Below, in pieces: positions 9,038 through 14,280 of a stretch of DNA of 64,000 nucleotides. Position numbers and translations under genes: made by a program. The DNA is taken from the NCBI RefSeq assembly GCF_900169565.1, contig NZ_LT828648.1:3074501-3138500 (forward strand), read 5' to 3'. Within the stretch, counting starts at the first letter, position 1. Every line of letters starts with the position of its first letter. The DNA comes from Nitrospira japonica. GTDB lineage: Bacteria; Nitrospirota; Nitrospiria; Nitrospirales; Nitrospiraceae. The notes under the pieces are model-generated. The model worked only from the letters and a program-made list of their open reading frames with translations. It ran no database searches and was not told where the DNA came from.

Positions 9038-9054
9038 ACGAAAGCGACGATTTG

Positions 9055-9714
9055 ATGGCGCATCTCCCATCTCGCCGCTGGTTCCTCGGCGTCTGCGCAG
9101 CCGCCCTTCTGATGGGCGGCTGCACAGGGCCGGCGTATGTCCCGGAGATCACCGTCGCGGAAGCGAGGCCGATCGTCGATGCCACCGCCGAGTTTCATGG
9201 TCTCTTCCCCGCACGGGCACTCGTGTCGGGTAAACGGACGTATGGACTCGATGCCCCGAAAGCCAGGCGACAACCTCCCACGGAATTGACGAGACAACTC
9301 GAACAGGAGATGCTGAAAGAACTCGCGGCGGCCGGAGTCTTTTCCCGGGTGACCGGATTCGACCCTAAACCGGACGTCATTATTGCCGGCCGTATCGACG
9401 CATTTCACGAAGAGTACCGCCCACGTGCCTGGACCTACGTTCCAATCCTCGATAAACAACTGGTGTCCAGGCTGCTGAATCTCAAGAGCCACACGAGCAC
9501 GGGGGAGGCGAGTCTGACATTGTTCGTGTTGACGCCGGATGGAGCCCTCATCGGGACCTACGAAGGCCGATCCACCTTCGACGAGCAATTCAACCCGACG
9601 AACGAAGTTCCTCCGGGTGCACGCCTCAACCGCGCGCTCTCCGACGCGGTCAAGGACATTCAAGACCAGATCGTCCGCGACGCGCAGCTGCGCAAACTGG
9701 CGTCGCGATCCTGA
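9055..9714 (+). CDS. Outer-membrane-type lipoprotein of unknown function
   Basis: A 219-aa predicted lipoprotein with signal peptide MAHLPSRRWFLGVCAAALL and lipobox LMGGCTGP. The mature region carries ELTRQLEQEMLKELAAAGVF then DVIIAGRIDAFHEEYRPRAW, which resembles LPS-assembly or curli-type lipoproteins that combine an alpha helix with a beta sheet; no family is firmly recognised. The alternative TTG at 9052 has no better RBS, so the ATG at 9055 is used. It follows the upstream lipoprotein gene by 17 bp. Confidence 0.7.
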   Translation: MAHLPSRRWFLGVCAAALLMGGCTGPAYVPEITVAEARPIVDATAEFHGLFPARALVSGKRTYGLDAPKARRQPPTELTRQLEQEMLKELAAAGVFSRVTGFDPKPDVIIAGRIDAFHEEYRPRAWTYVPILDKQLVSRLLNLKSHTSTGEASLTLFVLTPDGALIGTYEGRSTFDEQFNPTNEVPPGARLNRALSDAVKDIQDQIVRDAQLRKLASRS

Positions 9715-9830
9715 CCCACGCACGGCCCGCCATCGCACTACGTGATTTTTCTTGAAGAACCGGCCGCTTTCGTCCACGATGAGCCGTAATACCGGCCGTA
9801 GCGCGCATCGAACCTTCGAGAGAGATCGCC

Positions 9831-10523
9831 ATGCACATCGTCACATGCCGTCCCGCTGCATCACTGGGTATCAGCGTCCTCCTCTTTGCACCAGGCTGCG
9901 CCTGGCAAAGTACCTACGACCAGGCGGTCGCCGAACGGGAAGGCGTCAAGGCGGAATTGCAGAGCGTCAAGCTTGAGCAGGACCGTCTGATGGAACAGGT
10001 CAAGGAAATCGAGCCCCTGACGAAACAGGCCAGACTGCAGGCGGAACAGGCCAATGCCTCGCTCAGGGACGCCGTCGATGCGGCGGAGGGAGCACGCCAG
10101 ATCGGCGAAGAACGCCAGGCCAAACTCGCGCTTCTCATCGACCAGCTGTCCGCCCAGCAGAACAGTCTGCGCCAGTCCATGCGGAAGATGAAGGCGGAGC
10201 GACCGGGCTTGCAGTCCGCCGTGGACAAGTATCGGGCGCAGCTCGACGAGGCAGACCGGCTCAGCGCCGCCGCGTCGTTCCCGCCACCGCCTCCCGTTCA
10301 TGACCCCATTGCCTCCGCGACGGTACCGCCGCCGCCGTCACTCCCCGGACCGACCGTAACCCCGACGTCCGTTTCTTCCTCGGCGTCCGTGCCGTCGTCC
10401 GATCCCCTTGCCGTTCCTGCGACAAGACCGGCAACCAAGCGGGGAGTCGAGCCGGCCGAGGAGGGATTTTTTGCGAGCATGAAGGATTGGCTGGTCTCTA
10501 TCTGGCGATCAGTCTTTTCTTAA
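9831..10523 (+). CDS. Coiled-coil lipoprotein with Pro-rich linker
   Basis: A 230-aa predicted lipoprotein. The lipobox is LFAPGCAW (Cys about residue 23). Residues about 28-145 are a long heptad-like coiled coil rich in Glu, Gln, Lys and Ala (AELQSVKLEQDRLMEQVKEI). A Pro/Ser/Thr/Val-rich low-complexity linker follows (about 146-205). A C-terminal amphipathic segment, FFASMKDWLVSIWRSVFS, may touch a membrane. The design resembles tethered periplasmic spacer proteins. No enzymatic motif is seen and the function is unknown. Confidence 0.65.
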   Translation: MHIVTCRPAASLGISVLLFAPGCAWQSTYDQAVAEREGVKAELQSVKLEQDRLMEQVKEIEPLTKQARLQAEQANASLRDAVDAAEGARQIGEERQAKLALLIDQLSAQQNSLRQSMRKMKAERPGLQSAVDKYRAQLDEADRLSAAASFPPPPPVHDPIASATVPPPPSLPGPTVTPTSVSSSASVPSSDPLAVPATRPATKRGVEPAEEGFFASMKDWLVSIWRSVFS

Positions 10524-12198: not shown

Positions 12199-12594
12199 AT
12201 GAACTACAAATGGGTACTGTGGGGGCTTTGTCTCTCGATCGGTCTCGCCGGATGCGGCGGAAGTCAACCGGCCGAAATCAAGGACGAACGCTTGACGGTC
12301 GGAAGAGTACAAAGCGAAATCAAGGTCGGCATGCCGGCTTCCCAGGTCGTGGAAATCCTGGGCTCACCCAACATCGTGACCACCGACGAGAAGCGGCGGG
12401 AAGTCTGGATGTACGACAAGGTGTCGACCGACCGGGTAGATACCGCAAGTTCCTCGTACGGCACCTTGATCATTCTGGGAAAAAACTCGCGGGATGCCTC
12501 GAGTTCTCAGCGGCAACGCACGCTCACGATCATCATCAAGTACGACGATGACAAGAAAGTCCGTGATCTTGCGTATAACTACACCCAGTTCTGA
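12199..12594 (+). CDS. BamE/SmpA-like lipoprotein
   Basis: A 131-aa predicted lipoprotein with lipobox IGLAGCGGS. The segment VQSEIKVGMPASQVVEILGS followed by PNIVTTDEKRREVWMYDKV has the SmpA/OmlA (BamE) signature, in which a G-M-(T/S)-xxxVxxxLG-xP turn precedes a tryptophan strand. Such proteins assist outer-membrane assembly or act as small binding modules. It is the first of four lipoprotein genes in tight tandem: its 3' end overlaps the next start by 47 bp. A good start follows GAGGGGGAATCACAC. The role in this cluster is unknown. Confidence 0.7.
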   Translation: MNYKWVLWGLCLSIGLAGCGGSQPAEIKDERLTVGRVQSEIKVGMPASQVVEILGSPNIVTTDEKRREVWMYDKVSTDRVDTASSSYGTLIILGKNSRDASSSQRQRTLTIIIKYDDDKKVRDLAYNYTQF

Positions 12595-13192
12595 TCGCCT
12601 CGCCGCCCGCTCCGGCCGGCTTGCCGGGTGGGCGGCCTGTTTGGCCTGCACAGCCGGCCTGGCCCTGTTGGCGGGTTGCGTCCAGGAGACGAAGCCCGAC
12701 GAGCTGTTCCAGCTGAAGCCGGAAAGCCTCCGGAACCGGGCGATGTCCATACGCACCTTCGACACTTCCAACGAGCTCGAGCTCCTGTCGGCTTCCGCGG
12801 CCGTTCTCCAAGACCTGGGGTACCAGGTGGAGGAGAGCGTGCACGAGGTCGGGTATTTCCGCGCGGTCAAGGAACGGAGCGCCAGGGAACATGGCCAGGA
12901 CTGGCAGCGGGTCATGTTCTTCTTTTTCTCGCTGGGCGGAGCCGTCATCCCGGTCGATCTCCACCAACAGCTCGTGGCGAATCTGGTCACCAAACCCCTC
13001 AATCCGGAGGGCACCAAGCAACAGGTGCGCATCAGCTTCTACCGCATCGTCTGGAAGGGCGACGGCCAGGCCAATCGGCAATACATCCCGCCTGGGGAGC
13101 AGTATATGGAGATGATCCATGATCCGGAGATCTACCAGCAATTCTTCGCCAAACTGTCCAAGGCCGTGTTCCTGGAAGCCCACGACATCTAG
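12548..13192 (+). CDS. Lipoprotein, tandem paralogue 1
   Basis: A 214-aa predicted lipoprotein starting at the ATG inside the previous gene. The lipobox is ALLAGCVQE. The mature domain starts MSIRTFDTSNELELLSASAA, continues VLQDLGYQVEESVHEVGYF and ends DPEIYQQFFAKLSKAVFLE. The same framework recurs in the two following genes, so the three are paralogues made by duplication. A hydrophobic MFFFFSLGGAVIPVDL insert is specific to this copy. No known family is recognised by eye. The 47-bp overlap with the BamE-like gene suggests coupled expression. Confidence 0.7.
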   Translation: MTRKSVILRITTPSSDRLAARSGRLAGWAACLACTAGLALLAGCVQETKPDELFQLKPESLRNRAMSIRTFDTSNELELLSASAAVLQDLGYQVEESVHEVGYFRAVKERSAREHGQDWQRVMFFFFSLGGAVIPVDLHQQLVANLVTKPLNPEGTKQQVRISFYRIVWKGDGQANRQYIPPGEQYMEMIHDPEIYQQFFAKLSKAVFLEAHDI

Positions 13193-13210
13193 CACGAGGA
13201 GCCGGAATCT

Positions 13211-13675
13211 ATGCGGAACGCATTAATGGCCCGACGGTGGGGGTGGGGAATCGTCATCGGCCTCTGGGGTGTGCTCTTATACGGATGTACGACCCCGGAG
13301 CAGCCGCCGACCCTGCTGGCGCCGACGGAGGCACAGCTGAAGATCCGCAACTTTCAGACGCGGGTCTTCGACATGACCGACCGAAACTTTGCGATCCGAT
13401 CCGTCATCGGTTCGCTCCAGGACTTGGGCTTCATCATCGAACGGGCCAACGACGTCCTGGGGCTCGTGACGGCCGCCCGTTTCGCCGAACCGAACTACTA
13501 TGACGTCGTCACCATCACCGTGACCGTGCGGCAGCTCAATGCGACGCAGCTCACGATCCGGGCCAACGCGATCTACAACAACCGGCCGATCGAGGATCCC
13601 AAAGTTTATCAGAACTTCTTCTTCACCCTCGAACGGTCGTTGTTCATCACCAAGGAGAGCCCGACCGCGCCATGA
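13211..13675 (+). CDS. Lipoprotein, tandem paralogue 2
   Basis: A 154-aa predicted lipoprotein with lipobox LLYGCTTPE. The conserved framework is AQLKIRNFQTRVFDMTDRNF, then SLQDLGFIIERANDVLGLVT, and a C-terminal DPKVYQNFFFTLERSLFI. It is the shortest of the three paralogues and lacks their inserts, so it may represent the minimal domain. It starts 18 bp after paralogue 1 behind an AGGAG and overlaps paralogue 3 by four bases (ATGA). Function is unknown. The domain looks like a small alpha/beta module anchored in the envelope. Confidence 0.7.
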   Translation: MRNALMARRWGWGIVIGLWGVLLYGCTTPEQPPTLLAPTEAQLKIRNFQTRVFDMTDRNFAIRSVIGSLQDLGFIIERANDVLGLVTAARFAEPNYYDVVTITVTVRQLNATQLTIRANAIYNNRPIEDPKVYQNFFFTLERSLFITKESPTAP

Positions 13676-14280
13676 GAAGTTCAGCGGGATACCAGTCGAC
13701 TTGGCTCGGTCCGGCGACCGGATCGATGTGCCGGACCGTCGTGGCGCTGGCCTGCCTTGCCGGTCTCTCAGGCTGCAACACCTATGAGCTGCGCCAGGAA
13801 AATCAATCGAACGCGCGCAATCAGGTGTGGCTGTCCGAAACGAGCCAACTCAAGATCCGCGCCGCCCAAACCAGAGTGTTCGACACGACCGACCGCCTGA
13901 AGCTTCTGCAAGCGGTCGTCTCGACCATGCAGGATCTGGATTTCAAAGTCGAAGTCCTCGACCAGGATCTGGGAATCGTCTCGGGAAAGAAGTTCGTGGA
14001 GGTCGAGACCGGCTACATGGCTGACCCGGTCTATTACTATCTCTATCGGCCCGATACGATGATGTTCCTCGCCCGAAACTACCGATCCTGGGGTCCCTTC
14101 TACTATCGCAGCAACCTCGTGCGGTTCACCGCCACGATCCGCCCGCGCGGCGAAACGCAGTCGCTCATCCGTGTCAGCGTGCAGTACTACATGCACGCGC
14201 TCGAAGATCCGAAGGCCTATCAAGAGTTCTTCCGCACACTCGAACAGTCGCTCTTCCTTCAAGGCCACGAAGATACGTAG
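13672..14280 (+). CDS. Lipoprotein, tandem paralogue 3
   Basis: A 202-aa predicted lipoprotein with lipobox AGLSGCNTY. Framework: LKIRAAQTRVFDTTDRLKLL, VVSTMQDLDFKVEVLDQDLG, and DPKAYQEFFRTLEQSLFLQG at the C-terminus. Compared with paralogue 2 it carries an extra Tyr-rich insert (MADPVYYYLYRPDTMMFLAR). The ATGA overlap with paralogue 2 shows coupled translation. The start ATG at 13672 gives a longer than usual n-region before the hydrophobic core. Function is unknown. Confidence 0.7.
   Translation: MRSSAGYQSTWLGPATGSMCRTVVALACLAGLSGCNTYELRQENQSNARNQVWLSETSQLKIRAAQTRVFDTTDRLKLLQAVVSTMQDLDFKVEVLDQDLGIVSGKKFVEVETGYMADPVYYYLYRPDTMMFLARNYRSWGPFYYRSNLVRFTATIRPRGETQSLIRVSVQYYMHALEDPKAYQEFFRTLEQSLFLQGHEDT

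What the first reader, a model, noticed from the sequence alone, without database searches (positions are those of the whole stretch)
12199..14280. Four-gene lipoprotein cluster with three tandem paralogues
A BamE-like lipoprotein overlaps the first of three genes that share the framework IR-x(F/A)-x-T...QDL(G/D)(F/Y)...DP-x-(I/V/A)YQ-x-FF. Overlaps (47 bp, ATGA) indicate co-translation. I recognise no known family for the paralogues; a multi-subunit envelope assembly is plausible.
Basis: partly seen in the sequence, partly recalled or inferred. Interest (0 to 1): 0.5.

Follow-up and report, generated by a model that had tools for sequence, protein, structure and literature searches.

The report
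Mobile cassette of four surface lipoproteins
Four neighbouring genes make small lipid-anchored proteins that look like parts of the machine that builds the bacterial outer membrane; the same set, or a two- or three-gene version, turns up in several bacterial phyla, on plasmids and inside phage genomes, so it is probably a portable envelope module, perhaps one that keeps rival phages out.

Summary
Window 12199-14280 (+) holds four co-directional lipoprotein genes: A (BamE-like) and B, C, D, three members of one family absent from Pfam and NCBIfam. Of the 80 best loci found with A alone, 77 keep the order A-B-C-D; two others are cut by contig ends, and in one a transposase-like ORF stands where D would be. 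By record titles, mostly of metagenome assemblies, the set lies in Nitrospirota, Nitrospinota, Planctomycetota, Myxococcota and Pseudomonadota. Models of D and B show one helix-grip domain; BamC heads both Foldseek lists, but sequence profiles do not link them to BamC.

Best reading: an outer-membrane lipoprotein module that travels on phages and plasmids and was kept by many Nitrospira, most likely for exclusion of phages (or plasmids) at the envelope. Cassette, fold and carriage are shown computationally; exclusion is inferred. Main rival: a lineage-specific BAM accessory. No function has been tested.

The parts
12199..12594 (+). gene A: BamE-like lipoprotein, 131 aa, lipobox Cys at residue 19
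   Evidence: Pfam BamE 24.8 bits (cut-off 23.2); phrog_3135 E 1.1e-8
12494..13192 (+). gene B: first paralogue, 232 aa as listed (likely start 12548), lipobox Cys at residue 62, hydrophobic insert
   Evidence: model mc9f511267a74
13211..13675 (+). gene C: second paralogue, 154 aa, shortest core, lipobox Cys at residue 26
13672..14280 (+). gene D: third paralogue, 202 aa as listed (alternative start 13726), lipobox Cys at residue 35, insert of some 35 residues relative to C
   Evidence: model m9be1d6d69df0
12548..12594 (+). overlap of the end of A with B if B starts at the ATG at 12548 (47 bases)
   Evidence: sequence
13672..13675 (+). ATGA overlap of C stop and a D start (not certain: another D start at 13726)
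   Evidence: sequence

Best explanation
The four genes are one functional module: four lipoproteins exported by Sec, lipidated, and (no Asp at +2) probably sorted to the inner leaflet of the outer membrane, where they form a hetero-oligomer of one BamE-like subunit and up to three helix-grip (BamC-N-domain-like) subunits. The ancestral unit was probably A plus one paralogue; tandem duplication gave A-B-C and A-B-C-D. The short forms travel on temperate phages, plasmids and probably conjugative elements; the four-gene form spread across phyla and was kept in many Nitrospira. Most likely function: envelope exclusion. The complex binds an outer-membrane beta-barrel protein, or BamA/BamD, from the periplasmic side and changes the display or shape of phage (or conjugation) receptors so that a resident element keeps competitors out, as Llp does with FhuA. 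SHOWN by computation: genes, lipoboxes, paralogy, predicted fold, fixed order, phage and plasmid carriage, mixing of phyla in the tree. INFERRED: direction of the duplications, outer-membrane site, complex formation, target, exclusion.
For: Order A-B-C-D in 77 of 80 loci found with A alone. Over all 164 loci examined (sets overlap), 161 hold A, and in 158 of these a paralogue starts on the same strand at most 334 bases after the end of the A match (median 28); in the other three A lies at a contig end. Found from the paralogue side, A is in the cluster in 50 of 50 Nitrospirota genomes (6 seen, 44), 9 of 11 Pseudomonadota loci and 6 of 6 Planctomycetota loci. No Asp at +2 in 567 of 567 lipoboxes recognised in A-D; 1 of 20 in P. 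Viral carriage: 11 IMG/VR contigs; flanking phage genes confirmed by profile in L220 (terminase E 1.7e-38, portal 3.8e-61), L228 (the contig of L217; integrase, tail fibre), L222 (tail tube, portal) and L216 (terminase). Defence genes nearby: an Old/GajA-type nuclease one small ORF upstream of A in L228, and a type III-like restriction-modification pair and PDC-S06 downstream of C in L226. Integrase beside the A-P pair in L112 and L113; TraN about 3 kb from it in L168; plasmids L018, L019. Tree of A: phage copies need at least 4 changes on starred branches, four-gene copies keep together (2 changes) with phyla mixed. Precedents: T5 Llp, a periplasmic lipoprotein that jams FhuA (PMC9586334, abstract and start of introduction seen), and Rtp45 on LptDE (PMC12685063, likewise).
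Against: No exclusion phenotype is known. The proteins match no PADLOC model (0 of 5 cassette proteins at E<=1e-3) and no known exclusion protein: the Cor hits of L220 B and C cover only their signal-peptide region. The four-gene form, including this window, was not found in any of the 11 viral contigs, and its neighbours here are housekeeping or transport genes. Phage copies are rare (11 contigs in a 2.9-million-contig collection; none by tblastn with three queries in 50,697 phage records), so phages might merely have picked up a host envelope operon now and then; no background rate for other host lipoproteins in viral contigs was measured. Phage neighbours were verified by profile in only 4 of the 11 contigs. 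Most non-Nitrospira loci are short contigs of metagenome assemblies, so wrong binning could feign part of the spread across phyla.
Confidence: 0.38

Rival explanations
1. Lineage-specific BAM accessory module: A stands in for BamE and B-D for BamC, docking on BamD to tune outer-membrane protein assembly; phages and plasmids only occasionally pick it up.
For: A passes the Pfam BamE cut-off as a protein and is the best BamE match of the genome in six frames (21.3 bits, there just under the cut-off); BamD is present (E 7.4e-30) and no BamC over the cut-off; the D model's top nine Foldseek matches are BamC (E 5.2e-5 to 6.9e-4); a 2012 survey proposes that lineages evolved their own BAM lipoproteins (PMC3359395, passages seen).
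Against: Patchy: 9 of 41 genomes, own included, and 50 of 295 Nitrospirota have it; several genomes of the same family that are 98-100% complete gave no match. It coexists with partial BamC matches (C-terminal part, over the cut-off) in the Methylomonas genome G315. B-D are not linked to BamC by profile comparison. Intact sets sit among phage genes.
Confidence: 0.27
2. Lysogenic-conversion module with another benefit (resistance to envelope stress, predation or lytic compounds), comparable in role to lambda Bor (recalled), not to exclusion.
For: Same carriage evidence; a TetR-type regulator (identified by eye) lies upstream in four Nitrospinota-type loci (L088, L093, L094, L106) and a WYL regulator upstream in L167, which suggests conditional expression.
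Against: No stress gene is a constant neighbour; neighbour clustering found no gene conserved across phyla outside the cassette (a rough test on a subset of loci that also clusters shadow ORFs).
Confidence: 0.17
3. A chromosomal envelope complex for transport or lipid traffic, linked for example to the neighbouring SDF dicarboxylate symporter, unrelated to phages.
For: In the window (SDF symporter) and in L020-L022 the symporter is next door; a SulP transporter lies on the small plasmid with A-B-C.
Against: A symporter homologue was found at the locus in only 3 of the 8 other relatives examined; other loci have unrelated neighbours.
Confidence: 0.1

Closest known systems
BamE (PF04355), with OsmE and other SmpA/OmlA-type lipoproteins
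   Same: A passes the Pfam BamE cut-off; lipoprotein of similar size; the conserved core G-S-P-N...W-x-Y looks like the G-x-P...W-x-Y core of BamE (recalled)
   Different: A is followed by members of the B/C/D/P family in 158 of 161 loci, the other three being at contig ends; it has its own Ser/Gly-rich loop; a phage family close to it is phrog_3135, function unknown; binding to BamD is untested
BamC (PF06804), N-terminal helix-grip domain
   Same: Lipoproteins whose predicted fold has BamC as top Foldseek match (D: E 5.2e-5; B: 1.7e-3) and VIA Z 9.3, rmsd 4.1, 97 aligned for D
   Different: One domain instead of two; linker of about 20 (B, C) or 28 (D) residues from the lipid Cys to the first core motif; TM-scores modest (for D, about 0.36-0.43 by the query's length); no profile link
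Flpp3 lipoprotein of Francisella (PDB 6pny, 9nlt)
   Same: Best VIA match to the D model (9nlt: Z 11.0, rmsd 2.1, 89 aligned) and second for B (6pny: Z 10.4, rmsd 2.8, 95 aligned)
   Different: 5-8% identity; the family profiles match no PDB chain better than E 0.04, and those matches are unrelated proteins. A shared common fold shows no kinship
Phage superinfection-exclusion lipoproteins (T5 Llp; Cor and Ltp recalled or from listings)
   Same: Small lipoproteins carried by phages
   Different: Those are single small proteins; this is an ordered set of two to four lipoproteins; no sequence kinship beyond a signal peptide; exclusion untested

Membership tests
BamE (PF04355) for A | passes the curated Pfam score | tested here: met
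   24.8 bits against 23.2; all 10 members of alignment A2 match PF04355 at E<=1, best 6e-6; in the six-frame genome search the match is 21.3 bits, just under the cut-off
BamE (PF04355) for A | binds BamD / is part of BAM | not testable with these tools
   no interaction data; only single chains can be modelled
BamC (PF06804) for B, C, D | sequence matches the BamC profile | tested here: not met
   no PF06804 match at E<=10 for B, C, D; profile-profile probability 8-30% against 14 BamC sequences, for B, C and D over the signal-peptide end
BamC (PF06804) for B, C, D | helix-grip fold | tested here: met
   top Foldseek matches are BamC chains for D and B; VIA Z 9.3 and 8.6, tied with KA1 and Bet v 1-like proteins; C not modelled
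BamC (PF06804) for B, C, D | two tandem helix-grip domains | tested here: not met
   mature proteins of about 130-170 aa; D and B models hold one domain
BamC (PF06804) for B, C, D | long N-terminal linker that binds BamD | tested here: inconclusive
   linker present but short, about 20-29 residues to the first core motif in most rows; binding not testable
Phage superinfection-exclusion lipoprotein | lipoprotein encoded in phage genomes | tested here: met
   for the two- and three-gene forms: genes in 11 viral contigs, phage neighbours confirmed by profile in 4; the window's own four-gene form was not found there
Phage superinfection-exclusion lipoprotein | blocks adsorption or injection | not testable with these tools
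   needs an infection assay
Phage superinfection-exclusion lipoprotein | sequence kinship to a known exclusion protein in PHROGs or PADLOC | tested here: not met
   PHROG Cor match of L220 C spans residues 4-29 only (E 8e-4); none for the window proteins at E<=0.1; no PADLOC match

The most novel reading that the evidence does not exclude
A previously undescribed mobile machine: phages, plasmids and conjugative elements carry a self-contained copy of the BAM accessory folds (BamE-like plus BamC-N-domain-like lipoproteins) that docks on the host's outer-membrane assembly machinery or on assembled barrels and reprograms which receptors are displayed, giving multi-protein envelope exclusion; the four-gene form was domesticated across at least five phyla and kept by many Nitrospira.
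Probability: 0.18. Interest if true: 0.8.

Novelty: new variant of a known kind. Interest (0 to 1): 0.55.

Why it matters
It defines a lipoprotein family without a name in Pfam or NCBIfam, tied almost without exception to a BamE-like partner, found in several phyla and carried by phages, in two contigs near recognised defence genes. If it excludes phages by acting on outer-membrane protein assembly or on a receptor, it would be a multi-protein counterpart of Llp and a new class of envelope defence; if it serves BAM, it would show that BAM accessory modules move horizontally, which would change how BAM evolution is read. Either answer can be tested in one laboratory strain.

Tried and rejected
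Rejected: (1) artefactual ORFs: purifying selection and conservation over the loci. (2) True BamC: profile comparison and domain number fail, fold only. (3) Replacement of canonical BamC/BamE as the sole role: patchy distribution and coexistence with partial BamC matches in G315. (4) Link with the dicarboxylate symporter: next door only in the window and three of eight other relatives. (5) Membership in a PADLOC system: no match. (6) A conserved extra neighbour: clustering of flanking ORFs of a subset of loci found none across phyla; the largest cluster consists of shadow ORFs (an inference from its members), and a TetR gene and an ATPase gene recur only in Nitrospinota-type loci (identified by eye).

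Led nowhere: PDB sequence searches with paralogue profiles (best E 0.094 and 0.04, unrelated proteins); promoter/terminator scan; phage records by tblastn (none); viral scan with the A of L113 (none); BFVD fold search with D (none at E<=0.001; the best, E 7.2e-3, is a lipoprotein of an uncultured Caudovirales phage); a BamC background scan of viral contigs was prepared but not run, as the alignments looked too diverse for peptide patterns. Papers: the listings show no title or abstract start that describes this cassette; only open-licence papers are held, and most listed papers were not opened.

Corrected on recount: L063 lacks D not because of its contig end but because a transposase-like ORF (by eye) follows C directly.

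Not proven: physical complex, membrane sorting, function. The lipobox-to-core spacing and the lipobox count rest on regular expressions that missed some rows. The loci overlap between sets (for instance L022 and L029 lie on contigs of the same length and appear to be one). The neighbour lists come from a simple ORF picker and my reading; only genes named with a profile call are verified.
Full report
1. What is in the window. Four genes follow one another on the + strand at 12199-14280. A (131 aa) is a BamE-like lipoprotein: Pfam BamE 24.8 bits against a cut-off of 23.2. B, C and D each carry a signal peptide and a lipobox by inspection and match no Pfam or NCBIfam family beyond chance-level hits. 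Within the 4.08-Mb genome D finds C and B at E 1.5e-8 and 1.9e-5 and nothing else better than 0.2. Profile comparisons give C-D 2.7e-43, C-B 7.5e-26 and B-D 6.8e-20. dN/dS is 0.05-0.16 in 8 comparisons (four genes, two same-genus genomes). The overlaps are less informative than they look: D has a second in-frame ATG at 13726, and some relatives lack the overlaps.

2. Conservation. Of 41 genomes (40 relatives and the window's own), 9 have D, and all 9 have A-B-C-D in order. A scan of a collection of 84,980 species genomes with the alignment of A found 293 relatives, of which the best 80 were kept; 77 of these 80 have A-B-C-D in order (75 exactly, one with one and one with two extra D-like pieces). 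L101 and L104 are cut by contig ends; in L063 a transposase-like ORF (by eye) follows C where D would be. Independently, a B profile found 50 of 295 Nitrospirota genomes: 6 were already known, and of the 44 newly fetched loci 37 are A-B-C-D and 7 are A plus one paralogue P, so A is in the cluster in 50 of 50. A general paralogue profile found 12 of 398 Pseudomonadota and 6 of 199 Planctomycetota, centres included; A is in the cluster in 9 of 11 and 6 of 6 loci examined (one Pseudomonadota fragment, G580, was left out; the exceptions are L162, on a short contig, and L163). Over all 164 loci, 161 hold A; in 158 a paralogue follows on the same strand within 334 bases (median 28), and the other three (L101, L216, L223) have A at a contig end. 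The sets overlap in part. Lipoboxes were recognised in 567 of 577 A-D proteins; none of the 567 has Asp at +2, and 1 of 20 recognised in P has. By the Lol rule of enterobacteria (recalled) this predicts the outer membrane.

3. Forms. There are two-gene sets (A-P: seven Nitrospirota genomes of other families than the window's, a Vibrio replicon L175, some Pseudomonadota and one Planctomycetota), three-gene sets (A-B-C: Azospirillum plasmid L018, Acinetobacter plasmid L019, several Pseudomonadota and Planctomycetota), four-gene sets and one larger cluster of six (L159/L160, two genomes). In the tree of 79 paralogues D is one clade (100/98), B one clade (94/92), the two-gene P one clade (99/95), and D groups with the third gene of the three-gene form (98/98), apart from the four-gene C. 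This suggests that the last gene of both forms corresponds and that C of the four-gene form is the additional copy; a loss in the three-gene form would explain it as well. The root is not known.

4. Mobility. In the tree of 53 A proteins four-gene copies keep together (2 changes against a mean of 17.7 in shuffles) while phyla are mixed: a Pseudomonadota and a Myxococcota copy pair with 96/88, and Planctomycetota lie in two places. Most of these loci are metagenome contigs, so wrong binning is a caveat. Phage copies (8 rows) need at least 4 changes on starred branches. The viral collection gave 11 contigs with cassette genes: A-B-C in 5, A-B cut by the contig end in 2 (with the same neighbours, apparently near-identical contigs), A-P in 1, a lone A at a contig end in 2, a lone C at a contig end in 1. 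Neighbours verified by profile: a DNA-binding protein, terminase and portal in L220; integrase and tail fibre in L228, tail tube and portal in L222, terminase in L216. The other contigs look like phage by eye. Defence genes: an Old/GajA-type nuclease one small ORF upstream of A in L228, and a type III-like restriction-modification pair plus PDC-S06 downstream of C in L226. Chromosomal A-P pairs lie beside integrases in L112 and L113, and L168 has TraN of an F-type conjugation system about 3 kb away. The four-gene form was not seen in a viral contig, and here its neighbours are an SDF symporter, a CDP-alcohol phosphatidyltransferase, a helicase-like protein, a lipoyl ligase and a pyridine nucleotide-disulphide oxidoreductase: a resident, not an evident prophage.

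5. Fold. D (57 sequences, mean pLDDT 79.8, pTM 0.69) and B (35 sequences, 79.3, 0.69) are one helix-grip domain with poorly predicted inserts; C and A were not modelled. Foldseek's first nine matches for D are BamC (E 5.2e-5 to 6.9e-4, TM-scores modest), and BamC heads the list for B (1.7e-3; none there passes 0.001). VIA-align puts Flpp3 first for D (Z 11.0, rmsd 2.1, 89 aligned) and BamC-N at Z 9.3 (rmsd 4.1, 97 aligned), tied with KA1 and Bet v 1-like proteins; for B, KA1 of Chk1 10.7, Flpp3 10.4, BamC 8.6. The fold is common, so this shows likeness, not kinship; profile comparison with 14 BamC sequences fails (probability 8-30%).

6. Function. The genome has BamD, no BamC over the cut-off, and A is its best BamE match, so a BAM-accessory role is a serious rival, in line with the proposal that lineages evolve their own BAM lipoproteins (PMC3359395, passages seen). 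Against it as the main role stand the patchy distribution, the coexistence with partial BamC matches in the Methylomonas genome and the phage carriage. The precedent for a phage lipoprotein that acts on an outer-membrane protein from the periplasm is T5 Llp on FhuA (PMC9586334); Rtp45 excludes phages at LptDE (PMC12685063). For both papers I saw the abstract and the start of the introduction. I therefore put envelope exclusion first (0.38), BAM accessory second (0.27), other lysogenic-conversion benefits third (0.17) and transport fourth (0.10). No exclusion phenotype has been shown, and the background rate of host lipoprotein operons in viral contigs was not measured.

7. Novelty. Searches in Pfam, NCBIfam, PHROGs and PADLOC gave no described family for B, C and D, and the listings of eight paper searches no paper on the cassette; the paper library holds open-licence papers only. 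Lipoproteins carried by phages, and BAM lipoproteins, are known kinds; an ordered, mobile set combining BamE-like and BamC-fold lipoproteins is, as far as these searches show, a new variant.

Noticed in passing
L159 and L160 (unnamed 2.0-Mb Pseudomonadota genomes), about 4.6-7.6 kb: Six-gene cluster of the same kind, order P-P-A-C then two paralogues on the other strand: a further expansion beyond the four-gene form.
   Followed up: partly
L232/L231, 950-4257: In the phage-like contig that carries A-B, a gene with a reverse transcriptase domain (Pfam RVT_1) follows a small ORF and a larger ORF; the arrangement looks like a diversity-generating retroelement (by eye).
   Followed up: no
L098, 9777-13921; L049, 13371-13718; L063, 3341-3880: Disturbed D genes: in L098 D-like ORFs at 9777-10082 and 13175-13921, in L049 a second D-like ORF, in L063 a transposase-like ORF in place of D.
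   Followed up: partly
L093, L094, L105, L106 (Nitrospinota-type loci), upstream of A: An ATPase gene (SbcC/YhaN-like by eye), in L093 and L094 with a metallophosphoesterase-like gene, and in L093, L094 and L106 (also L088) a TetR-type regulator lie upstream of the cassette.
   Followed up: no
L019, 1884-3338 and 4090-4675: The 8-kb Acinetobacter plasmid that carries A-B-C also has a SulP transporter and a RelE/HTH toxin-antitoxin-like pair.
   Followed up: partly
window 9052-9714: Another lipoprotein-like ORF with a weak Lipoprotein_16 match (E 0.0062, below cut-off), a few kb upstream; not part of the cassette.
   Followed up: no
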